Origin: Yoonia sp. F2084L
Lineage (GTDB): Bacteria > Pseudomonadota > Alphaproteobacteria > Rhodobacterales > Rhodobacteraceae
Length of the DNA stretch: 64,000 nt
NCBI RefSeq assembly: GCF_023015625.1
Contig: NZ_JALKAH010000003.1
Span: 496,001 to 560,000, forward strand
Direction of reading: 5' to 3'
Shown here: piece after piece, positions 45,985-56,896 of the stretch
Layout of the letters: every line of letters begins with the position of its first letter
Position numbering within the stretch: the stretch's first letter is position 1
The notes under the pieces: model-generated
Databases searched by the model: none
The model's input: the letters and a program-made list of their open reading frames with translations, nothing else
What the model was told of the DNA's origin: nothing
Translations under genes and position numbers: made by a program

Positions 45985-46506
45985 ATGGCTTTGCGAAATA
46001 TACTTATTCACCCCGACCCGCGTTTGAAGAAGGTGGCGACCCCTGTGGCGTCGGTCACGGATGAACTGCGCCGTCAGGCTGATGACATGTTAGAGACGAT
46101 GTATCACGCGCCCGGAATTGGTCTCGCTGCTCCGCAGATTGCGGTGATGAACCGGATGCTGGTGATGGACTGCGCCAAGGAAGATGACGCGACCCCGGAA
46201 CCGATGGTCTTGATCAACCCTGAGGTGGTTTGGACCTCGGAGGAACGCAACATCTATGACGAGGGCTGTTTGTCCATTCCCGAGCAATATGCCGAAGTGG
46301 AACGCCCCGCAGAGGTTGAGGTGACGTGGATGAACCTTGATGGCCAGACAAAGCGCGAGCGATTTGATGGACTGTGGGCCACCTGCGTGCAACATGAGAT
46401 CGACCACTTGGATGGCAAGCTGTTCATCGACTACCTCAAGCCGCTGAAACGCCAGCTGATCACCCGCAAGATGCAAAAGCTGAAACGTGAAATGGCGCGA
46501 GGTTAG
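45985..46506 (+). CDS. def: Peptide deformylase
   Basis: A 173-residue metallo-deformylase that removes the formyl group from nascent proteins. All three active-site motifs are intact: GIGLAAPQ (44-51), EGCLS with metal-ligand Cys95, and HEIDHL with His137, Glu138 and His141. It is first of three deformylase-type genes before fmt. The housekeeping copy is most likely this one. Confidence 0.95.
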   Translation: MALRNILIHPDPRLKKVATPVASVTDELRRQADDMLETMYHAPGIGLAAPQIAVMNRMLVMDCAKEDDATPEPMVLINPEVVWTSEERNIYDEGCLSIPEQYAEVERPAEVEVTWMNLDGQTKRERFDGLWATCVQHEIDHLDGKLFIDYLKPLKRQLITRKMQKLKREMARG

Positions 46507-46511
46507 GCGGG

Positions 46512-46973
46512 TTGGCTGTGCGTCCGCTGCGCTTTGAAGGTGATCCGGTTTTGTTGCAGACGGCAGCCGCCGTCGATCAGTTTGATGATGATCTGGCCGT
46601 GCTTGTCCGCGATATGTTTGAAACGATGTATGCCGCCCCCGGGCGTGGATTGGCCGCCCCACAGATAGGCGTCAGCCGCCGTGTGTTTGTGGTGGATACC
46701 GACTGGAAAGAGGCAGAGCCTGCGCCGATGATCTTTGTGAACCCGCAGATCACTGCGCGTGCGACACATGAAGTGCAGGGGACTGAAGCGTGTTTGTCTA
46801 TTCCGGGCAAAAGCTTTGATGTGATGCGTCCGGCTTGGGTTGAAGTGGCTTGGCAGGATTTGGATGGTACAGCGCAACAGGCCCGCTTTGACGGCGTGCA
46901 GGCGATCTGTGTTTGTCACGAGTTGGACCATTTGAACGGCCTTTTGATTACGCAGACAGGAACGTTGCAATGA
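46512..46973 (+). CDS. Peptide deformylase paralogue 2
   Basis: A 153-residue paralogue. GRGLAAPQ replaces GIGLAAPQ, with an Arg near the substrate pocket; EACLS keeps Cys94 but has Ala for Gly; HELDHL keeps His136, Glu137 and His140. So the metal site is complete and the protein may be active with changed specificity. It ends shortly after the HExxH helix and lacks the C-terminal tail of the first copy. It begins with TTG (or the GTG two codons later) 5 bp after def. Confidence 0.85.
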   Translation: MAVRPLRFEGDPVLLQTAAAVDQFDDDLAVLVRDMFETMYAAPGRGLAAPQIGVSRRVFVVDTDWKEAEPAPMIFVNPQITARATHEVQGTEACLSIPGKSFDVMRPAWVEVAWQDLDGTAQQARFDGVQAICVCHELDHLNGLLITQTGTLQ

Positions 46974-47470
46974 CACATCGACCGTTCGTGATGTGGCCGC
47001 ACCCGGCTCTGCGGACCCCCGCGGTGGCTGTTGATGGGATCACGGATGAGGTGCGCGCGATCTGGGATGAGATGATCATCGCCATGGATATGATGCCCGG
47101 CGTGGGCTTGGCCGCTCCGCAACTGGGGATCGGGACGGCTTTGGCGGTTGTTGATGCCTCACAAGAGCGGGGACAGGCGATCCGCATGGCGAACCCGATC
47201 ATTTTGCATAGCAGCGTAGAACCACGTGTGCATGAAGAAGGATCGCCCAATTTACCCGGTGTCTGGGCCAAGGTGACGCGGCCTCGTGCTGTGACCGTGC
47301 GGTTTCTGAATGCGGATGGGCAATGGGACCGGCAGGATTTTGTGGGCCTTTGGGCGACGTCGGTGCAGCACCAAATCGACCATTTGGCCGGGCGGATGTT
47401 TTTTGATCACCTGACGCGGGTGAAGCGGGATATGCTGATTAAGAAATCTGCCAAAATGCGGCGCGGCTAG
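46970..47470 (+). CDS. Degenerate peptide deformylase paralogue 3
   Basis: A 166-residue paralogue with a normal GVGLAAPQ (44-51), but the metal-ligand cysteine is lost (EGSPN, Ser92 where EGCLS is expected) and the general-base Glu is replaced by Gln (HQIDH, His134-Gln135). It cannot be a normal deformylase. A role in partner binding or regulation is possible. It overlaps paralogue 2 by 4 nt (ATGA). Sequence quality is otherwise intact, so it is a maintained variant rather than a pseudogene. Confidence 0.85.
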   Translation: MTHRPFVMWPHPALRTPAVAVDGITDEVRAIWDEMIIAMDMMPGVGLAAPQLGIGTALAVVDASQERGQAIRMANPIILHSSVEPRVHEEGSPNLPGVWAKVTRPRAVTVRFLNADGQWDRQDFVGLWATSVQHQIDHLAGRMFFDHLTRVKRDMLIKKSAKMRRG

Positions 47471-47479
47471 CGTCGGAAT

Positions 47480-47512
47480 GCCTCCGGCGGAAGTTTGATT
47501 GGACGAAGAAAG
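47480..47512 (+). repeat. CCTCCGGCGG-type dispersed repeat upstream of fmt
   Basis: Identical over 33 bases to the copy at 42773-42805 (GCCTCCGGCGGAAG, then TTTGATTGGACGAAGAAAG). It lies between the third deformylase gene and fmt and ends 9 bases before the fmt ATG. Confidence 0.75.
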
Positions 47513-47521
47513 TCGAAGCTC

Positions 47522-48421
47522 ATGCGAATAATCTTTATGGGAACGCCCGACTTTTCGGTGCCGGTTTTAGAGGCGCTTGTTGAGGCAGAACATGAGGTCG
47601 TGGCAGTTTACTGTCAGCCACCTCGTCCGGCGGGGCGTGGCAAGAAGGACCGTCCGTCATCGGTGCAGCTGCGCGCAGAGGCGTTGGGTTTGGAGGTGCG
47701 GCATCCTGTTTCGCTGAAAGGGGATGCAGAACAGGCGGAATTTGCGGCACTTGATGCCGATATCGCTGTGGTGGTCGCCTACGGCCTGATCTTGCCGCAG
47801 GCCATTTTGGATGCGCCCGCATATGGGTGCCTGAACATTCATGCCTCGCTTTTGCCGCGCTGGCGTGGGGCCGCGCCGATCCACCGCGCAATCATGGCGG
47901 GCGACGCCCGGACCGGCGTTTGTATTATGCAGATGGAGGCGGGGCTGGATACGGGCCCGGTTTTGCTGCGTGAAGCGACGGATATTGATGCGGAAGAAAC
48001 GACTGGCGCGTTGCATGGCCGGCTGTCGCGGATGGGGGCGGCGCTCGTGGTGCAGGCTTTGGCGCAGTTGCCTGATTTGGAACCGCAGGTGCAGCCGGAG
48101 GATGGCGTGACCTACGCTACCAAGATCGACAAGGCCGAGGCCCGCGTTGATTGGGCGCAGCCCGCAGTACAAGTGGATCGGCATATCCGTGGGCTGTCAC
48201 CCTTTCCAGGTGCGTGGTGTATGGTGGGTGAGCATCGGATCAAACTGCTGGGATCGCGCGTTGTCGAAGGTTCAGGTCCGCCGGGCGCTGTTCTAGATGG
48301 GTTTACCATTGCTTGCGGAGATGGCGCGGTTGAGGTCACGGTTGCTCAACGACCGGGCAAGAAGGCCATGCCGGCCCGAGAGATCCTCCAAGGGCTTGAT
48401 TTGAGCGATGTCCTGTGCTGA
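47522..48421 (+). CDS. fmt: Methionyl-tRNA formyltransferase
   Basis: A 299-residue enzyme that formylates initiator Met-tRNA with 10-formyl-tetrahydrofolate. [21 protein letters not shown] is the typical start, the catalytic site is in [26 protein letters not shown] (Asn, His), and AGLDTGPVL with the C-terminal anticodon-side domain follow. The ATG is chosen because homologues start here; the longer open frame includes the dispersed repeat. Together with the deformylase genes it forms the formyl cycle operon. Confidence 0.96.
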
Positions 48422-49342: not shown

Positions 49343-49411
49343 ACCCTTTTCTTTATGGTCTGAGCGGGTCAAACTTGCGCCGGAAAGGGCCTGCCTGTGC
49401 GCGGCCTGACG

Positions 49412-49440
49412 TTGAAAATTATGACAACAGTGCTTACGTA
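49412..49440 (+). promoter_or_regulatory. Weak promoter candidate for the 49.5 kb cluster
   Basis: TTGAAA at 49412-49417 and TACGTA at 49435-49440 with a 17-bp spacer, 32 bp upstream of the coiled-coil gene ATG. The -10 box is a poor match, so this is tentative. Confidence 0.25.
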
Positions 49441-49472: not shown

Positions 49473-50555
49473 ATGGCGAATTTTGAGACACAGATTAAGG
49501 ACAGCCAGGCACAAGTTGCCGAGGCACAAAGCAAGATTTCAGAGCTGACCAGCCGGATCGAAGTGGCGCGCACCAAAATGGCCGAAGGCACTGATATCTC
49601 AGTCGATATCGAAAACGCCAGCCTTGAGGACGTGCATGCCCATACCGAGCTGATGAACGCCAACATTGCTGAACTGATCATGGGTCTTGATGACGTCACA
49701 TCCGCCTTTTCCAAAGACTTTGACGAAATGCGATCCAAGACCGGCATGGAAAGCCTGATCGGGTTTTTCAGCAAGGGTAAGGCCGACAGCATGCGTCAGG
49801 AACGCATGCGCACCGCATCCATTGATGACAAATTACAGGATCTGATTAGCAAATCCGATGTGATCATGAAATTGCTTGAGGGTCAGTTGACTGTCCTGAA
49901 CGAGCAAAAGGTCAGCGTTGAGAAGAACCTTGGTGGTACGTTGGAAGAACGTGAAGTCACCGTGGGTGAACTGGAAGCATTGCGCGCCGATATTCTGGCG
50001 ATGGATCCCAAGATCATTGAACTTGAGAACAAGATTTCTGTTGAACAGGACGCCGCTGCACGTACCAAATTGGAAACCGAATTGGCCGCTTTGAACGGCA
50101 AGTACAATGAAATGGTCCAGAATGAACAGGTGCAGTTGGCGAAAAGCCAGACGCTTGAGCGCTACATCGAAAAGGGCAAGACCTGGATCGACAGTTTGCA
50201 GAACCAGGCGGCGACGCAGATGGTGCTGATCAACAAATTGCAGACGGATACCAAGCAGCGCGTTGTCCTTTACGATGCTTTGTCAAAGTCGTTGAAGACG
50301 GCACAGCAACAGGATGTGGCCCACCAGATCAACGAGATTGGTGTGAAGACCGATCAGGAAGCGCAATCAGCGATGGCGGCGATTGGATCGGCCACGAACG
50401 CTCGGATGACCGACATGCTGGAAGCGCATGAGGACCACATGGTCTTTGCCCGCGAAGTATTGGAGCAGAAGGCGAAAGCGGATGAACGCTTTGTGCGCCG
50501 ATTCCAGGAGATCGTGCGGAAGCATGACAGCAATCAGTATGGGGAACAAAGCTAG
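49473..50555 (+). CDS. Coiled-coil protein, TelA-like (unknown function)
   Basis: A 360-residue, largely helical protein. Residues 1-60 and 145-260 have strong heptad character (VAEAQSKISELTSRIEVARTKMAEG, AALNGKYNEMVQNEQVQLAKSQTLERYIEKGKTWIDSL). The later part (ATQMVLINKLQTDTKQRVVLYDALSKSLKTAQQQDVAHQI) recalls the toxic-anion-resistance TelA family, although the similarity is partial. It has no signal peptide. GAGGGA stands 6 nt before the ATG. First gene of the eight-gene cluster to 56837. TelA membership needs a profile search. Confidence 0.75.
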   Translation: MANFETQIKDSQAQVAEAQSKISELTSRIEVARTKMAEGTDISVDIENASLEDVHAHTELMNANIAELIMGLDDVTSAFSKDFDEMRSKTGMESLIGFFSKGKADSMRQERMRTASIDDKLQDLISKSDVIMKLLEGQLTVLNEQKVSVEKNLGGTLEEREVTVGELEALRADILAMDPKIIELENKISVEQDAAARTKLETELAALNGKYNEMVQNEQVQLAKSQTLERYIEKGKTWIDSLQNQAATQMVLINKLQTDTKQRVVLYDALSKSLKTAQQQDVAHQINEIGVKTDQEAQSAMAAIGSATNARMTDMLEAHEDHMVFAREVLEQKAKADERFVRRFQEIVRKHDSNQYGEQS

Positions 50556-50575
50556 GCTGGTCAGGAGTAGGTGGT

Positions 50576-50881
50576 TTGACTGTTAGAACGCGAACTATGC
50601 TCTGTCTGATCGTTGGTTTCCTTCTACTGTTGCATGCGATGTCTGTGCAGCCGGGCCAAAACAACGGCGTCCCACTCTCTTTCTTGATTGGTGCTCCTAT
50701 GTTTCTGTGGTTTGGAGTTTGTGTGCCAGTGTTTAGAACGATCATTGGCGGACTAGCCCACGCAGATGAAGGGTCGAACGCATACTTGATGGACCGGTTT
50801 CGAAACTCTTGTGATGGGCCGCTTGGTCGATTTTGGATGTGGTTTGTCGGATCCGACCGTAACGGAAACCTTCGTCCATGA
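50576..50881 (+). CDS. Small membrane protein in the AAA+ cluster
   Basis: A 101-residue protein with two hydrophobic segments (TMLCLIVGFLLLLHAMSV and FLIGAPMFLWFGVCVPVFRTIIGG). It begins at TTG with AGGAG upstream; the in-frame ATG at 50597 is the alternative. It overlaps the next gene by 4 nt (ATGA). The G+C is visibly lower than its neighbours. Function unknown. Confidence 0.65.
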   Translation: MTVRTRTMLCLIVGFLLLLHAMSVQPGQNNGVPLSFLIGAPMFLWFGVCVPVFRTIIGGLAHADEGSNAYLMDRFRNSCDGPLGRFWMWFVGSDRNGNLRP

Positions 50882-51999
50882 CCGCCCCTGACCTCCAAGC
50901 CGACCATATGAAGCTGGAAGATACCCGCGTCACCCGTCGGTATTTTGATAAGTTCGCCAAGATAACCGGCTATCTGACCAAGGTTGCCGCAACAATGGAG
51001 ACCGAAGGCCGCTTTGATCGCAAAGAGATCGAGGTGATGGCGCGCTATCTGATTGGCCTCAACTGGACCTTCACCGCGCTGTCACACAAGTATCATTTTG
51101 CCGGCCGCTTTGCCCATGCGGGCAAGTTGACCTTTGACCGACGCGAAAGCGGTTTTCCTGTCTACCAAGAGCTTTTGGAGATGGCGAATGATGCGTTGCA
51201 GGCGGACCGTCATTTGGACGCGCAGCCGAGTGCAGCGGACCTCAAAGACCAGATGGTGCGGGTGATCCTGAGTGAACAGGAAATCCCGACAAAACTGCAA
51301 TATGCGTTGTCGCAGCGGCTTTATTATGAAGAACTGTCGCGCGGTGATCAGTTTTGGGCGCGCAATGATCCGCAGTGTCTGTGGCTGGGCAATGAAGGCG
51401 ATCGGCGCCGGTTCTTGGTGCACTGGGCGGTCTATGACAGTCAGGTGAACCTGCCGACGATCTATCTGATGGATGTTGAAGACACCGGGCGCACCGGGTT
51501 GCCCAAGGACGAACACCGCTGGCCCGAAGCGCAGACGCATTTGATGGCGCAATCATTGGCGCATCTGAAGTTGCTGACGATTGCAAAGGGTTTTGATGAG
51601 GATTTTGCCGATCTGCACCCCACCCGTTTGCGCCGGTTTCATATCGGTCCGATGTATAGCAACGCCTTTACCCGGCAGGCGGGTCCGCTGCGTGATGTGC
51701 TGAAGGCCGCCAATGCGCCAATGGGTGAGGATTGGGCCTTGGTCTGGACCGAGGAAGAGCTGGTTTCGGAGCGTGTTGAGAGCGTGAAAACCGGCTGGTT
51801 TGGGTCCGTGGAACGCCAGATATTCGCGCTTGATCCGTTTGAGGGCGGCGGGGCCGAAACCGGCGCGACGCGCATGGAGCGGTCGTTGATTATGCCAGAG
51901 CGCCCTTATCAGGCCCTCGCTGAGCGCAACCCCGCGGGCTTTCGTGATGTGCGCAAGTTTGTGGTCAGCGATGGCGGGCGGGTGTTGAGTTACAGGTAG
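50878..51999 (+). CDS. Conserved-looking hypothetical protein, 373 aa
   Basis: A 373-residue cytosolic protein I do not recognise. No ATPase, nuclease or membrane motif is visible. Stretches such as RRYFDKFAKITGYLTKVAATME, YLMDVEDTGRTGLPKDEHRWPEAQTHLMAQSLAHLKLLTIAKGFDEDF and RLRRFHIGPMYSNAFTRQAG look like a structured enzyme or adaptor. It overlaps the small membrane gene (ATGA). Its stop TAG is part of a GTAGGGTGGGT repeat. Function unknown. Confidence 0.78.
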   Translation: MTAPDLQADHMKLEDTRVTRRYFDKFAKITGYLTKVAATMETEGRFDRKEIEVMARYLIGLNWTFTALSHKYHFAGRFAHAGKLTFDRRESGFPVYQELLEMANDALQADRHLDAQPSAADLKDQMVRVILSEQEIPTKLQYALSQRLYYEELSRGDQFWARNDPQCLWLGNEGDRRRFLVHWAVYDSQVNLPTIYLMDVEDTGRTGLPKDEHRWPEAQTHLMAQSLAHLKLLTIAKGFDEDFADLHPTRLRRFHIGPMYSNAFTRQAGPLRDVLKAANAPMGEDWALVWTEEELVSERVESVKTGWFGSVERQIFALDPFEGGGAETGATRMERSLIMPERPYQALAERNPAGFRDVRKFVVSDGGRVLSYR

Positions 52000-52021
52000 G
52001 GTGGGTCAAGACCCACCTTAC
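51996..52021 (+). repeat. GTAGGGTGGGT palindromic repeat, copy 3, containing a stop codon
   Basis: GTAGGGTGGGT and ACCCACCTTAC form 11-bp arms (one wobble) around CAAG. TAG at 51997-51999 is the stop of the 373-aa gene. Same family as 21037-21058 and 2131-2154. Confidence 0.7.
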
Positions 52022-52076
52022 GGGATGCGCTGCTGTGGCCCTTTGGCAGATGTCGGCGTGTTGTGAGAGCATAGAT

Positions 52077-52113
52077 GCCTCCGGCGGAGGTATTTGGGAA
52101 CATGAGAAGAAGG
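52077..52113 (+). repeat. CCTCCGGCGG-type dispersed repeat upstream of the AAA+ gene
   Basis: GCCTCCGGCGGAGG followed by TATTTGGGAACATGAGAAG and AAGG. The hairpin CCTCC-GGC-GGAGG is intact. The AGAAGG end lies 7 nt before the ATG at 52121 and so provides the ribosome-binding site of the AAA+ gene. Confidence 0.75.
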
Positions 52114-52120
52114 ATGCGGC

Positions 52121-54061
52121 ATGAGCCAGTCAAGTGACCAGATGGAATTGCGCGAAGATGATATCCGCAAGCACTATATCCCTGCGGCTGAGATGCTGAT
52201 GCATCTTGATCATGCCCCTCGGTTGGCCAAGGCGCGTTTGTCGTTGCAGACGCCAGAGAAATCGCCGGATGTGGCGGCGACGCGCCGCAGGTTCCGGTCG
52301 ACGACGCCGGGGTTGTTGTCGCGCACCTCTGCGCCTTCGGGCGGTGTGCGCCTATTGGACCGGATTGCGGAAACGGATGACGATGATCCGCTGACCTCGC
52401 CTGCGCAGGCCGCAGTGGCCCATGCGTTGCGTCGTGCTTTGTCGATTGCATTGACCGTGGCGGATGCGTTTTCGGATCAGACCGCTTTGACCGAGTTGAA
52501 ACGCATCAATTTGGAAGGGCGTTTGCCGCAGGATCGGTCGGTGGAGTTTACCGAGTATCTGACGGCTGAATCGCTGGTGGCCCTTTACACATTTGCCAAT
52601 GCGACGTCCTTCCTGCTGGCTACGCAAGCGGGTGAACAGAGCGTGGATGTGGGCAGTGTGGATGAGGTTCTGACGGACAATGCCCCGCTGGCCCTGCATG
52701 GTGCGATTTGGGAGTTGGATCAGAAACTGGGTCAGTTCGCCAAGGATGAACCGACACTGATTGCAACGATGCTGGCCTATGCCGAGCAGTTGATGGAGAA
52801 AGTTTCGTTGCGGGCCTCGACCGCCGGGCGGCTCGCGTCCTTCAACGCGGCGTCCTGGCGTGTTGAAGCGGATGATTTTGTGGTGCAGGGCTTTACCCCG
52901 GCGCGCAAGGCCAAGGGCTCTGCCCTGACGATGACCTTCAAGAAACCCAATGAAGTCGTAGGCAACCATATCGCCAAATATCAGGCGATGAAGCTGTCCA
53001 AGATGCTGATGGCCTATGACTTTGATCGCAAGCTGAACCCTTTTGCCGAATTGGGCGGGTTCATCTTTACCTTCATGGGCGATGGCGCCCCGGGGACGGG
53101 TAAGACGACGCTTATTCAGATGATGGCGGGGCTGGTGAATGAGTACTGCCAGACGGCGGGCTATCCGTTCCGCTACCAGAACCTTTCGACCGACAATATC
53201 GACAGCTATCAGGGTAAGTCCGGGCAGAACGCGAAGGCCTTTATCAACAATGTGCTTGATCCCGGCGTCATTGGGTTTGGCACGATTGACGATATTGACC
53301 AGTTGGCCGGTAAGCGTGGTGATCGTCAGTCATCGGCTGGGCAGTTGGAGATTACCGCTGTGCTGATGGAAAGCTTCGCGGGGGCCAATACCGTTGTGCG
53401 CGGGAATTGTACCTTTGGGATGTTCTCGAATTATCCCGAGAATGTCGATGACGCCTTGCGCCAACGTGCCGGGGCGCGGTTTTTGGTGGACGGGCCGCAG
53501 ACGCGGGACGACTATATCGACATCCTTTACCTGCTGATGGGCAAGAACCACGATATCCCGGTTGGCGCACATGAAGTGTTTAGCGCGCAGGAGATCAAGA
53601 AGGCGGTCGCTGCTTCGTTTGATAGCCACGCGCGACCTCATGAAGACGGGCTGATGCGTGTGTTTGACAGGGTGCACTCGGAAGTTGGTGAACTGGACAC
53701 GATTGCCAAGCTGGGGACCTATCTGAAAGGTATTCAGGAGGCCGATCCACGCTTCACCGGCCGTGCGATCAAGAACATCACGGATGCGGTCAAGGTCCGT
53801 GCGATGGATTTTGAGCTGCCGGATGAATGGATGGAGGAACCCGATCTGTTCCTGTTCAAGGATTACGACACCAAGAAGGGTATGATTTCCGAACTGCGTC
53901 AACCGATCACGGTGGAGATGGTGATCCAAGAGATCAACCGCTACGCCGACAGTGAATTCCGCTATGCCGATAAGTCCGATGAGGTTGCGATTGAGAACAT
54001 GGTGCGTGACTTTGGTCGTCAGGAGATTGCCAAGAGGCGGTATCTGGAGGGAAAGGGGTGA
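52121..54061 (+). CDS. AAA+ ATPase with novel N-terminal region
   Basis: A 646-residue ATPase. Residues 1-270 are helical with no recognised domain. The AAA core has Walker A GAPGTGKTT (322-330), Walker B IGFGTIDDID (384-393) with two acidic residues, a sensor-1-like Asn/Ser (GNCTFGMFSNYPENV) and an arginine finger in DDALRQRAGARF (about 445-456). The C-terminal 190 residues form the helical lid and a tail. It has no signal peptide. The neighbours are a coiled-coil protein and several membrane proteins, so it may power a membrane-associated machine. The ribosome site is supplied by a dispersed repeat. Confidence 0.85.
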   Translation: MSQSSDQMELREDDIRKHYIPAAEMLMHLDHAPRLAKARLSLQTPEKSPDVAATRRRFRSTTPGLLSRTSAPSGGVRLLDRIAETDDDDPLTSPAQAAVAHALRRALSIALTVADAFSDQTALTELKRINLEGRLPQDRSVEFTEYLTAESLVALYTFANATSFLLATQAGEQSVDVGSVDEVLTDNAPLALHGAIWELDQKLGQFAKDEPTLIATMLAYAEQLMEKVSLRASTAGRLASFNAASWRVEADDFVVQGFTPARKAKGSALTMTFKKPNEVVGNHIAKYQAMKLSKMLMAYDFDRKLNPFAELGGFIFTFMGDGAPGTGKTTLIQMMAGLVNEYCQTAGYPFRYQNLSTDNIDSYQGKSGQNAKAFINNVLDPGVIGFGTIDDIDQLAGKRGDRQSSAGQLEITAVLMESFAGANTVVRGNCTFGMFSNYPENVDDALRQRAGARFLVDGPQTRDDYIDILYLLMGKNHDIPVGAHEVFSAQEIKKAVAASFDSHARPHEDGLMRVFDRVHSEVGELDTIAKLGTYLKGIQEADPRFTGRAIKNITDAVKVRAMDFELPDEWMEEPDLFLFKDYDTKKGMISELRQPITVEMVIQEINRYADSEFRYADKSDEVAIENMVRDFGRQEIAKRRYLEGKG

Positions 54062-54145
54062 TGCTTTCGGCCCGGTTCCCTTTACTGCAGTATTTGCGTC
54101 ACTTGAAGGTTTCGGATCATGTCCGGGACTGCGGTGTAAATTGAT

Positions 54146-54490
54146 ATGGGCGGTTTGATTTCAGACAGCTTGCTTCTCCCGACGTTCGTGCTGGCTATGC
54201 TGGCTTTTGTCGTCCCGCGTCTGTTGGCGCAGGCGCTGCCAGAGGGCGTCAAGTTTTTGCTGGCAAATGCGTTTCTGTCTACGCTATTGTTGTTTGCCAT
54301 CTCGGCTATGTTCTTTTTCTGCCTCTACCTCTGGCAAGGTCTGAGCGTCGCTGACGTCGCCGCACCGGGACTGGCGGCCAATGTGTTTTTCTTTGGCAGG
54401 CTGGGTTTAGCCGCGGGGATCATCTGGGCGCCGATTATGATACTCTCAGTTGCGGGTCTGCCGCGCAAATGGGTCAAGGAGACGTGGTAA
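54146..54490 (+). CDS. Small membrane protein, three helices
   Basis: A 114-residue protein with three hydrophobic segments (LLLPTFVLAMLAFVVPRLLAQ, LSTLLLFAISAMFFFCLYLW, GLAANVFFFGRLGLAAGIIWAPIMILSV). No family is recognised. The stop lies 2 bp before the TTG of the DUF6638 gene, which indicates coupling. 84 bp separate it from the AAA+ gene. Confidence 0.7.
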   Translation: MGGLISDSLLLPTFVLAMLAFVVPRLLAQALPEGVKFLLANAFLSTLLLFAISAMFFFCLYLWQGLSVADVAAPGLAANVFFFGRLGLAAGIIWAPIMILSVAGLPRKWVKETW

Positions 54491-54491
54491 G

Positions 54492-55844
54492 TTGCATCGC
54501 TTGATCGAAAAGGGACTGATGTTCGGAAACCTGATCCGGGTGGATTCCCCTGTGCTGGTGGAGCGCTACAATCGTGCGCTGAAGCATCTTTCAGGGCGTG
54601 AAACGAAATTAGATGTGTTTCATATTGATATCTCAGGATATTCGCCTGAGGTGGGTGATGAGCTGGATGACCCGCTTTACCTTAACCACAGGGGCGTCAA
54701 TCGTCAGTTTATTCTGCTCAGCACTGATCAGGCGACGGCCCCCTTGCTGAACGCAAAGTTCTCGACCTCGCGCGGTATTCTGCGTCAGTTCATCGAAGAC
54801 AACAGAGCCGAGCTTTTTGCTCTGACGGCTCGCGATGCGGTGGCCGGGGAACTGGTCAATTCGGTTTACGTTGCTGACACGCCTGCCAAGCTGTTTGATA
54901 TCCGCAAGGTCGCGGTCGAGGCGGATACCACAACCGGCACGGTGGCCGCTGCCGCCAAGCTGGGCACGCTGATTGATCGGTTCAAAGACGACCCTGACGG
55001 CTGGTATGACGATGTGCTGATTGCCGAAATGATCGGGATGGCCAAGCAGACCGGCGATGTAGTGCGCAACCCCGTTGCCTTGCAGCAAATGTCCTTTGCG
55101 CAAGACAACTTTTGGACTGACCATTTTGGCGGGATGTATGTGTTTCGCGGTGTCGCGCATCCGGCGGTTATTACGGCGGCCCCGAAAGAGGATGTGGGCG
55201 ATCTGCCCATTCCGTTTACCTTTGATTTTCAGGATCGCTCGGCTATTGCGAAATTTCTGACGCTGAATGATCTGGTTGAACCGATCATGGATGCGCGCGG
55301 CGTTGATGCCGCGGCGATCCTGCACCAGAAGATGGATTTCATCGTAGCCTCTGTTGCGGCTGAGATGCAGGAAGATTTGGCCGGTGCCACCCGCCGTGAT
55401 TTGCGCCGCTTGGGTCGTCGGTATGCCGACAAGCTGCCTGAGGCATGGCAGGGTCTTGCGGCCCTTGTGCGATGGGCAGAGGAGGATGGGCCGTGGCCCA
55501 CAATCACCTCAGAGCACCCGGCGTATTTCTATACGTTGCGCGCCAAGGCCCACCCAGACGCTGATCTGGTGAATATGCTCTTGTCCGAGTTGACGCCGCT
55601 GGATATTCGTCAGCTCTTTATCTGCCATAAGGAAGTGTTCTATCGTACTTACGCTGATTGGCCGGATGAAAAACGCGCCTATGTCGTTGATTTTCTTGAC
55701 CGCGAGTACCAAGTCGATAAAGCAGGGACGCGCAAGGCTTTGTTTGGCCACGAAGCCCCGATGACGGAATTGCCACGGGTCACGCAGCCTGATTTGATTG
55801 CACGTGTGGGCCCATGGGGTGCGTTGGCCCGAGGGAGGCGCTGA
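54492..55844 (+). CDS. DUF6638 family protein
   Basis: A 450-residue cytosolic protein. The start MHRLIEKGLMFGNLIRVDSPVLVERYNRALKHLSG is what I recall for DUF6638. It begins with TTG nine nt after AAGGAG. Further blocks are DVFHIDISGYSPEVGDELDDPLYLN, FWTDHFGGMYVFRGVAHPAVI and YFYTLRAKAHPDADLVNMLLSELTPLDIRQLFICHKEVFYRTY. No catalytic motif is obvious. It follows a membrane protein and precedes another (TGATG overlap), so it probably acts at the membrane with the AAA+ ATPase. Function unknown. Confidence 0.8.
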   Translation: MHRLIEKGLMFGNLIRVDSPVLVERYNRALKHLSGRETKLDVFHIDISGYSPEVGDELDDPLYLNHRGVNRQFILLSTDQATAPLLNAKFSTSRGILRQFIEDNRAELFALTARDAVAGELVNSVYVADTPAKLFDIRKVAVEADTTTGTVAAAAKLGTLIDRFKDDPDGWYDDVLIAEMIGMAKQTGDVVRNPVALQQMSFAQDNFWTDHFGGMYVFRGVAHPAVITAAPKEDVGDLPIPFTFDFQDRSAIAKFLTLNDLVEPIMDARGVDAAAILHQKMDFIVASVAAEMQEDLAGATRRDLRRLGRRYADKLPEAWQGLAALVRWAEEDGPWPTITSEHPAYFYTLRAKAHPDADLVNMLLSELTPLDIRQLFICHKEVFYRTYADWPDEKRAYVVDFLDREYQVDKAGTRKALFGHEAPMTELPRVTQPDLIARVGPWGALARGRR

Positions 55845-56119
55845 TGGGATTTATCAAACTGGTCATCTTTGGTTTCATTGGCCTGACGGTCATTTACTTT
55901 TCGGTATCGCTCTATTCGCGGTCGGTGCGTAAGGAGCGGCTCGAAGATCAATTCGCCGAAGAAAACCCAGATGGTGGTGCGCCCGGCGCCCGTGATGCAT
56001 TTGTGGCTGAGGGAATGCGAGCCTATCATAGTTCGATCCGACCTAAGCTGATTGGGTTAGTCTACGTGGTACCCACCGTTGTGATTGCCGCGATCATCTA
56101 TACCATCAACGCGAACTGA
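55844..56119 (+). CDS. Small membrane protein, two helices
   Basis: A 91-residue protein with terminal helices (GFIKLVIFGFIGLTVIYFSVSLYS and IRPKLIGLVYVVPTVVIAAIIYTIN) and a charged middle (RKERLEDQFAEENPDGGAPGARDAF). It shares a base with the DUF6638 stop (TGATG). Function unknown; likely a partner of the DUF6638 and DUF1523 proteins. Confidence 0.75.
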   Translation: MGFIKLVIFGFIGLTVIYFSVSLYSRSVRKERLEDQFAEENPDGGAPGARDAFVAEGMRAYHSSIRPKLIGLVYVVPTVVIAAIIYTINAN

Positions 56120-56129
56120 GGATTTCGAT

Positions 56130-56837
56130 ATGAAACGTTTCAAAACCATCGTTCGTGTGCTGGCATTGGTACTGGCCGGGTCTTTTCTGCACTATGTTCT
56201 GCCCCAGCATGATATTGTTCAGGTCAGTCAGGCCGAACCGCGTCGTACCGATTTTGGGTCCTTTAACCGGTGGTTCTACGCGCAGGCTGACAGCGGCAGC
56301 GCTGAGATGGAAAACCGCGATATCTTTTATATTTTCACCGAAAAGAAAGAGACTTTCTTGTTTGGCTTTGTGCCGCGCGACAGCATGGAGGTGATGGTCT
56401 ATCGCAACGAGGATACCGGCTGGATCTGGCCGCCGTACTTCAAGTTCGACAGCTCAAACCTGCATGGGCAGGCCACCACGCAGGCCCGCAAGGAACCCGA
56501 TAGCGAAGGTGGGAATTGGGCCGTCATTACCCACTATGGCTGGCGTATTCCGTTTTTGTCGATCTTCCCGAATGCGGTGGATATCAAGCCCGTGGAGGGA
56601 CCGGATGTGCGGATTATTCCTTGGTTTAACATCTTCTTTTTCATCTTCCTGATGGTGGCGATCCTCTTTGTGCGGGCCGCTTGGCGGCAATTCCGCGAAC
56701 GCTCGGTCGATCCGCTATTGGACGCGGCCGGCCACCAGATTGACGAAGTTCAGGCTGACGTGGCCGAGCGCAAAGGCCGTTTTTCGCGCTGGTTGGGCAC
56801 GTGGCGTGACAAAAACAAGAACCGCCCTATCGAGTGA
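56130..56837 (+). CDS. DUF1523 family membrane protein
   Basis: A 235-residue protein with an N-terminal helix (VRVLALVLAGSFLHYVLP), a periplasmic middle domain and a second helix (IIPWFNIFFFIFLMVAILFVRAAW), then a cytosolic helical tail. RTDFGSFNRWFYAQADSGSAE and VYRNEDTGWIWPPYFKFDSSNL are the DUF1523 signatures. It closes the eight-gene cluster 10 bp after the previous gene. Function unknown. Confidence 0.85.
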   Translation: MKRFKTIVRVLALVLAGSFLHYVLPQHDIVQVSQAEPRRTDFGSFNRWFYAQADSGSAEMENRDIFYIFTEKKETFLFGFVPRDSMEVMVYRNEDTGWIWPPYFKFDSSNLHGQATTQARKEPDSEGGNWAVITHYGWRIPFLSIFPNAVDIKPVEGPDVRIIPWFNIFFFIFLMVAILFVRAAWRQFRERSVDPLLDAAGHQIDEVQADVAERKGRFSRWLGTWRDKNKNRPIE

Positions 56838-56843
56838 TCTGAA

Positions 56844-56896
56844 GGGGGCGCTGCCCCCGCCTGCGGCTCCCCCGAGGTATTTTTGAACATGAGAAG
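56844..56896 (+). terminator. Hairpin terminator joined to a dispersed repeat
   Basis: GGGGGC-GCT-GCCCCC forms a perfect 6-bp stem (56844-56858). It is followed by CCTGCGGCTCCCCCGAGG, then TATTTTTGAACATGAGAAG, which is the tail of the CCTCCGGCGG-type repeat. It lies between the convergent DUF1523 and ALDH16 genes, so it is a likely intrinsic terminator for the eight-gene cluster. Confidence 0.6.

What the first reader, a model, noticed from the sequence alone, without database searches (positions are those of the whole stretch)
49473..56837. Eight-gene AAA+ / coiled-coil / membrane-protein cluster of unknown function
Eight plus-strand genes run from 49473 to 56837: a coiled-coil TelA-like protein, a 2-helix membrane protein, a 373-aa orphan, an AAA+ ATPase with intact Walker A, Walker B and arginine finger, a 3-helix membrane protein, DUF6638, another 2-helix membrane protein and DUF1523. 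Several overlaps (ATGA, TGATG) show coupling. Nothing here matches a known secretion, defence or division system that I can name. The mix of one ATPase, one long coiled coil, and four membrane proteins suggests a membrane-remodelling or stress machine.
Basis: partly seen in the sequence, partly recalled or inferred. Interest (0 to 1): 0.8.

Follow-up and report, generated by a model that had tools for sequence, protein, structure and literature searches.

The report
AAA machine with swappable membrane proteins
A set of four always-together bacterial genes, built around an ATP-driven motor protein, keeps two fixed slots in which close relatives carry quite different small membrane or defence-like genes; its function is unknown, but the pattern looks like a modular stress or anti-virus machine.

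Summary
The eight ORFs are real, but they are not one eight-part machine. Four genes form an all-or-none core: coiled-coil g1, orphan g3, a classical AAA ATPase and DUF6638. Of 148 Rhodobacterales genomes, the same 88 hold AAA, g1 and DUF6638, and 60 hold none. Their order is kept in 115 of 115 distinct complete loci, Rhizobiaceae and Vibrio included. The membrane genes are separable: DUF1523 remains in 54 of 60 core-free genomes, and core-free Yoonia G103 keeps g5-g7-DUF1523 with just the four core genes missing.

Two slots are hypervariable. Slot 1 (g1|g3; window g2) holds a small ORF in 69 of 120 loci, 66 with a predicted membrane helix; among pairs with g1 at least 95% identical, 6 of 119 are recognisably homologous. 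Slot 2 (AAA|DUF6638) holds membrane proteins and a few defence-like genes (Mrr, AbiJ, DrmA-like).

g1 is not TelA. g3 and DUF6638 give confident models without a match in PDB. Best guess: a cytosolic ATP-driven remodelling machine with exchangeable small effectors. Function is inferred, not shown.

The parts
49473..50555 (+). g1: 360-aa soluble coiled-coil protein, first gene of the four-gene core
   Evidence: mean column identity 83% in 39 rows; same 88 of 148 genomes as AAA; not TelA
50576..50881 (+). g2: slot-1 gene, 101 aa (TTG start; an ATG lies at 50597), 2 predicted membrane segments; not conserved
   Evidence: 2 of 147 other genomes match at E<=0.01, one of them in slot 1 of G010; hydropathy
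50878..51999 (+). g3: 373-aa soluble orphan of the core, alpha/beta, no fold match
   Evidence: no Pfam hit; model pLDDT 91.0; Foldseek PDB and viral: no hit at E<=0.001
51996..52021 (+). hairpin just after the g3 stop
   Evidence: -18.8 kcal/mol, z -3.5
52072..52096 (+). second hairpin between g3 and AAA; its 3' side overlaps a short repeat with further copies in the genome
   Evidence: -13.5 kcal/mol, z -3.0; repeat copies
52121..54061 (+). AAA: 646-aa classical AAA ATPase with an about 300-aa N-terminal region; Walker A GDGAPGTGKTT (residues 320-330), pore-loop-like SYQGKS (362-367), Walker B TIDDID (388-393), LRQR (446-449)
   Evidence: Pfam AAA 3.8e-11; invariant columns; aligned to Rpt4 and an i-AAA ATPase domain; motif counts in 121 sequences
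54146..54490 (+). g5: 114-aa, 3-segment membrane protein in slot 2; also kept in some core-free loci
   Evidence: found in 15 of 39 core loci and 5 of 22 core-free loci
54492..55844 (+). g6: DUF6638, soluble, fourth core gene (listed start 54519; probable start TTG 54492)
   Evidence: Pfam 2.5e-233; same 88 of 148 genomes; model pLDDT 89.5, no PDB fold at E<=0.001
55844..56119 (+). g7: 91-aa, 2-segment membrane protein; resident neighbour of DUF1523, not core
   Evidence: 18 of 22 core-free loci
56130..56837 (+). g8: DUF1523 membrane protein; resident, not core
   Evidence: 142 of 148 genomes: 88 of 88 with core, 54 of 60 without
49411..49429 (+). place where many relatives carry the palindromic operator before g1; the window itself does not have it
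   Evidence: operator at about 59-64 bp (or 30-40 bp) before g1 in relatives, not in the window

Best explanation
A four-protein, cytosolic, ATP-driven protein-remodelling module (g1, g3, AAA, DUF6638) that is inherited or lost as a whole and works with exchangeable partners encoded in two fixed slots of its operon. Inferred mechanism: the AAA subunits form a ring with an aromatic pore loop; g1 (long coiled coil) and the soluble proteins g3 and DUF6638 act as scaffold and adaptors; the small membrane protein of slot 1 and the cargo of slot 2 are the effector or target ends that are swapped between strains, most likely in a response to phage or to envelope attack. Shown: the four-gene unit, its all-or-none distribution, the separability of the membrane genes, the slots and their turnover. 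Inferred: ring, threading, adaptors, effector role and trigger.
For: The same 88 of 148 genomes hold AAA, g1 and DUF6638; 60 hold none. Seven of 337 Alphaproteobacteria hold AAA, and the same 7 hold g1. The same 10 of 72,556 plasmid records hold AAA and DUF6638. 115 of 115 distinct complete loci are colinear, and so are 8 more loci from other families. Core-free sites keep g5-g7-DUF1523. Slot 1: 69 of 120 loci occupied, 66 with a membrane segment, against 17 of 127 small ORFs of the flanks. Slot turnover: 6 of 119 pairs homologous at g1 identity of 95% or more, median g3 identity 96%. Slot-2 cargo includes Mrr, AbiJ_NTD4, DrmA-like, AbiP and PDC-S31 hits. Slot DNA is about 5 GC points below its own core. 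AAA aligns with Rpt4 and an i-AAA domain, with SYQGKS at the pore-loop position.
Against: 13 of 121 loci for which both slots could be read have neither slot filled, both Vibrio loci among them, so slot genes are not obligatory. The PADLOC excess in slot 2 is weak: between 7 and 10 of 65 cargo proteins against 1 of 40 flank proteins, Fisher p 0.12 to 0.03. No viral contig encodes the AAA, and the core is vertically stable and highly conserved, unlike many defence systems. No core protein has a good defence-model match; TRIP13 at 2.1e-5 is the best for AAA. Family counts for short hydrophobic proteins are upper bounds: 48 at E<1e-3, 5 linked groups at E<1. A Walker B Asp for Glu could mean slow or altered hydrolysis.
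Confidence: 0.45

Rival explanations
1. Stress machine with a passive landing site: the core is a general stress AAA chaperone, and the two junctions are merely tolerant places where foreign genes insert and are expressed from its promoter.
For: Slot-2 cargo is mixed and some has relatives among phage protein families; slots are lower in GC; the core stands without slot genes in 13 of 121 loci; in relatives the promoter shares an operator with DUF2852, DUF4112, nitroreductase and HlyD-type genes.
Against: Slot 1 is not mixed: 66 of 69 occupants have a membrane segment, against 17 of 127 small flank ORFs, which a neutral landing site would not give.
Confidence: 0.28
2. Envelope or membrane remodelling in the manner of PspA/ESCRT-III with a Vps4-like ATPase: g1 assembles at the membrane and the AAA disassembles it.
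For: A highly conserved coiled coil beside a classical AAA with an aromatic pore loop; membrane-protein genes as neighbours; shared operator with membrane-protein genes in relatives. PspA-AAA operons are described in PMC11237479 (passages read).
Against: Window g1 has no PspA hit in Pfam at E<=1, and its profile finds no PspA or ESCRT-III chain in PDB at E<=1; no core protein has a membrane segment; DUF1523, g7 and g5 are not tied to the core.
Confidence: 0.2
3. A TelA-type toxic-anion-resistance, MoxR-vWA or FtsH-type system.
Against: Profile comparison with TelA fails both ways and TelA is encoded elsewhere; no vWA or peptidase hit and no membrane segment in the ATPase.
Confidence: 0.03

Closest known systems
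Classical AAA ATPases (26S proteasome Rpt subunits, katanin, i-AAA; Pfam PF00004)
   Same: Walker A, an aromatic pore-loop position, an asparagine at the sensor-1 place and an arginine pair in one AAA domain
   Different: Asp-Asp instead of Asp-Glu in Walker B; an about 300-aa N-terminal region of its own; no protease or membrane anchor
PspA or Snf7 operons with a Vps4-like or other classical AAA (PMC11237479, passages read)
   Same: coiled-coil protein and classical AAA in one operon, membrane proteins nearby
   Different: g1 is not detectably PspA or ESCRT-III; two more soluble core proteins; membrane neighbours not tied to the core
CBASS-type defence operons with exchangeable membrane effectors (recalled from general knowledge)
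   Same: conserved soluble core, a TRIP13-like AAA (2.1e-5), exchangeable small membrane proteins
   Different: no cyclase or HORMA hit in these proteins; the core is stable at one chromosomal site in many relatives
TelA (PF05816)
   Same: long, soluble, coiled-coil protein
   Different: no sequence or profile relationship

Membership tests
Classical AAA ATPase (PF00004) | Pfam AAA model above its cut-off | tested here: met
   44 bits against a cut-off of 21.2, E 3.8e-11
Classical AAA ATPase (PF00004) | Walker A | tested here: met
   invariant in the 38-row alignment; pattern in 120 of 121 distinct sequences
Classical AAA ATPase (PF00004) | Walker B acidic pair, usually Asp-Glu | tested here: inconclusive
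   acidic pair present, but Asp-Asp: pattern in 119 of 121 sequences
Classical AAA ATPase (PF00004) | hexamer and ATP hydrolysis | not testable with these tools
   no biochemistry
TelA (PF05816) | g1 matches the TelA family | tested here: not met
   no hit at E<=1; hhalign 0.2% and 0.4%
PspA/IM30 or ESCRT-III with Vps4 | coiled-coil protein of the PspA or ESCRT-III family | tested here: not met
   window g1: no PspA hit in Pfam at E<=1; g1 profile: no such chain in PDB at E<=1. No comparison with a PspA profile was run; only 25 of 37 families were shown
MoxR-vWA | a partner with a vWA domain | tested here: not met
   no vWA hit in the eight proteins at E<=1
FtsH | membrane anchor and M41 peptidase | tested here: not met
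   no membrane segment, no peptidase hit
CBASS type III | CD-NTase cyclase and HORMA proteins | tested here: not met
   no such hit in the eight proteins in Pfam or PADLOC at E<=1; only TRIP13 for AAA, 2.1e-5
Known anti-phage system | core protein matching a defence model well | tested here: inconclusive
   weak hits only, best REase_II 1e-5 on the coiled coil and TRIP13 2.1e-5
Phage-borne module | found on viral contigs | tested here: not met
   103 pattern matches in IMG/VR, none a relative

The most novel reading that the evidence does not exclude
A modular immunity platform: a conserved four-protein AAA core senses phage or envelope attack and licenses whichever small membrane effector sits in slot 1, with extra defence cargo in slot 2; strains change specificity by swapping cassettes between genes that stay about 96% identical.
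Probability: 0.27. Interest if true: 0.92.

Novelty: categorically new. Interest (0 to 1): 0.74.

Why it matters
At least three of the four core proteins have no assigned function or solved relative, and two give confident models without a PDB match. Their all-or-none distribution gives a clear experimental unit, and natural core-free relatives in the same genus give ready comparisons. The two slots, in which close relatives carry unrelated small membrane proteins between nearly identical genes, are an unusual architecture; if the slot proteins are effectors, this is a new modular system in marine Roseobacters, rhizobia and vibrios. The rating 'categorically new' rests on failing to match any known system, not on demonstrated new biochemistry.

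Tried and rejected
TelA for g1: rejected. MoxR-vWA, FtsH, CBASS type III: defining partners not found. Phage origin: no viral contig. An eight-gene unit: rejected, because DUF1523, g7 and g5 occur without the core. Fold matches for g3 (PDB, viral) and DUF6638 (PDB): none at E<=0.001. CenR as owner of the operator: its published site is a direct repeat TGA-N8-TGA (PMC9275681, passages read), ours is a palindrome; the regulator remains unknown. Operator control of the window's own operon: not supported, because the site is absent there. Literature: searches for DUF6638 (0 papers), DUF1523, DUF2852, DUF2333 and four multi-term searches gave no description of this cluster (listings only); passages were read in PMC6377625, PMC11237479 and PMC9275681. 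A C-terminal motif shared by slot-1 proteins was made after seeing the data; it fits 4 of 70 against 2 of 1473 control ORFs, and is only a lead.
Full report
What is there. The window lies in a genome close to Yoonia/Loktanella (window = G000:C6:496001-560000; named relatives). Pfam names three: AAA, DUF6638 and DUF1523; NCBIfam names none convincingly. g1, g3, AAA and DUF6638 have no predicted membrane segment; g2, g5, g7 and DUF1523 do.

The core is four genes. I searched the same 148 Rhodobacterales genomes for AAA, g1 and DUF6638. The same 88 genomes have all three and the other 60 have none. These counts include G122, where all three are decayed, and G136, where the AAA is split between two contigs. 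g3 was not searched genome-wide; it is present in 127 of 127 loci looked at. In 337 Alphaproteobacteria AAA and g1 occur in the same 7; in 398 genomes of the phylum AAA occurs in 26. Of 72,556 plasmid records the same 10 (Sinorhizobium, Shinella, Rhizobium, Vibrio) carry AAA and DUF6638. Among 121 distinct AAA loci, 115 are complete for the four genes and all 115 have the order g1-g3-AAA-DUF6638 on one strand; the six incomplete ones were dropped. Eight further loci from other families agree. The named loci are the best 80 of 427 confirmed, so they lean to close relatives.

The membrane genes are separable. DUF1523 is in 142 of 148 genomes: all 88 with the core and 54 of 60 without. I looked at 22 core-free loci, chosen because they have DUF1523: none shows g1, g3, AAA or DUF6638, 18 have g7 and 5 have g5. 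The clearest is G103, of the window's own genus: pdf-fmt-ldt-g5-g7-DUF1523-aldh-deoC, where exactly the four core genes are missing from two places, before g5 and between g5 and g7. On a tree of 76 DUF1523 proteins the core/no-core labels need 16 changes, 12 of them forced by well-supported branches. Some genomes have a second DUF1523 elsewhere, so part of this history may be paralogy or transfer rather than loss from one site. Rhizobiaceae have DUF2333 in place of g7-DUF1523; the Vibrio loci have neither next to the core.

Two hypervariable slots. Slot 1 lies between g1 and g3 and slot 2 between AAA and DUF6638. Among distinct loci, slot 1 holds a sense ORF of 60 aa or more in 69 of 120, of which 66 have a membrane segment; slot 2 in 100 of 116, of which 79 have one. 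On the antisense strand 3 of 36 loci with an ORF in slot 1 and 10 of 81 in slot 2 have one with a membrane segment. Among small ORFs of conserved flank families 17 of 127 have one (Fisher 5e-32; loci are related, so this is a guide). For pairs whose g1 is at least 95% identical (median g3 identity 96%), slot-1 proteins are recognisably homologous in 6 of 119 pairs and slot-2 proteins in 8 of 129. Slot-1 proteins fall into 48 BLAST families at E<1e-3, but these are short and hydrophobic, and at E<1 they link into 5 groups, so 48 is an upper bound. In 72 loci, near-copies included, 49 slot-1 ORFs begin at or before the end of g1 and 53 overlap the start of g3; these depend on my choice of start codons. 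The window's g2 has two matches in the other 147 genomes at E<=0.01: one in slot 1 of G010 and one short match elsewhere in G091. Slot DNA is about 5 GC points lower than its own core at the median, lower in 54 of 67 (slot 1) and 81 of 104 (slot 2). Of 121 loci where both slots could be read, 13 have neither filled.

Slot-2 cargo. Besides membrane proteins there are an Mrr restriction endonuclease (Pfam 1.7e-32), an AbiJ_NTD4 protein (3.7e-10), a DrmA-like HATPase (PADLOC 7.6e-9), a DUF433 and a weak DUF4145 match; four of the ten proteins given to Pfam had no hit. A PADLOC scan of 65 slot-2 proteins gives hits in at least 7 and at most 10 (DrmA 3, AbiP 2, Mrr-type 1, PDC-S31 1, PDC-S37 1, CARF-HEPN 1, Hhe 1; the answer does not say which proteins coincide), against 1 of 40 flank proteins. 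Fisher p lies between 0.12 and 0.03, so the excess is suggestive only.

The ATPase. Its AAA domain aligns best with an i-AAA ATPase domain (1.1e-4) and, more weakly, with proteasomal Rpt4 (0.011), katanin and others. In that alignment SYQGKS falls on the pore-loop sequence DKYIGES of Rpt4. YQGKS and LRQR are found in 121 of 121 distinct sequences, the Asp-Asp Walker B pattern in 119 and the Walker A pattern in 120. That the ring threads a protein is inferred from this family knowledge.

Folds. AlphaFold2 models of g3 (pLDDT 91.0, pTM 0.89) and DUF6638 (89.5, 0.83) are confident. Foldseek finds nothing at E<=0.001 in PDB for either, nor among viral proteins for g3. The second aligner was not available, and no library of cellular predicted structures was on hand, so 'new fold' is not claimed.

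Regulation. A palindrome near ATGTAAAT-N3-ATTTACAT stands before g1 in many relatives. The pattern ATGTRAA-N5-TTYACAT occurs in 50 of 61 genomes, with no match of the reversed control pattern in any of the 61, often as two sites 58-59 bases apart. It was read upstream of DUF2852 at seven loci (L226, L228, L233, L239, L248-L250), of DUF4112 at four, of a nitroreductase at two and of a HlyD-type gene at one (Pfam names for some of them); other sites had no clear gene. A matrix built from 46 sites typed, none of them from this cluster, finds sites of 8 bits or more before g1 in 54 of 120 distinct loci, against 0.05 expected from shuffles, and none before g3, AAA, DUF6638, g7 or DUF1523. The window, its close Yoonia relatives that were looked at, the Rhizobiaceae and the Vibrio loci lack it. 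The regulator is unknown; it is not CenR by its published site (passages).

Mechanism and rivals. The core is best read as a cytosolic ATP-driven remodelling module. The nearly exclusive membrane character of slot 1 argues that the slot gene works with the core rather than being a passenger; the empty slots in 13 of 121 loci argue that it is not obligatory. Defence-like cargo and rapid turnover point to phage or envelope attack; the shared operator points to a stress response. I give 0.45 to the modular machine with exchangeable partners, 0.28 to a stress machine with a passive landing site, 0.2 to PspA/ESCRT-like membrane remodelling and 0.03 to known systems named at the start.

Noticed in passing
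window 45985-48421: Three peptide-deformylase-like ORFs in a row (45985-46506, 46512-46973, 46913-47470) before fmt; named from the sequence and from memory, no family search was run on them.
   Followed up: no
window 52077-52124: A repeat of about 35 bases between g3 and AAA has at least seven further near-copies elsewhere in the genome; its 5' part is the second hairpin. A similar stretch follows DUF1523 near 56875.
   Followed up: partly
L226 1443-1519 (G000:C4:359457) and 50 of 61 genomes: Two palindromic operators 58-59 bases apart upstream of DUF2852-RDD genes, also before DUF4112, nitroreductase and HlyD-type genes: an unnamed regulon.
   Followed up: partly
L188 11688-12851: In Sinorhizobium meliloti Ak57 an annotated IS4-type element (ISRm16) and an endonuclease-domain gene lie between AAA and DUF6638.
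   Followed up: no
L078 (G122:C52): A decaying copy of the cluster: fragments of g1, g3, AAA and DUF6638 with stops.
   Followed up: partly
L263-L269: Seven genomes that have the core (G007, G029, G073, G118, G129, G141, G145) carry a second DUF1523 elsewhere, in three of them beside aldh-deoC.
   Followed up: partly
L186, L187: In Vibrio parahaemolyticus and V. vulnificus the four core genes lie on 0.88-0.94 Mb replicons recorded as plasmids, followed by a gene annotated mfd.
   Followed up: no
L210 (G520): A genome placed only in the same phylum carries the whole cluster with a DUF1523 that branches among Rhodobacterales, suggesting transfer of the complete cluster.
   Followed up: no
window 50821-50878 and L099, L142, L153: Four slot-1 proteins share a C-terminal motif around WW/FW...D..G (4 of 70, against 2 of 1473 control ORFs; motif made after seeing the data).
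   Followed up: partly
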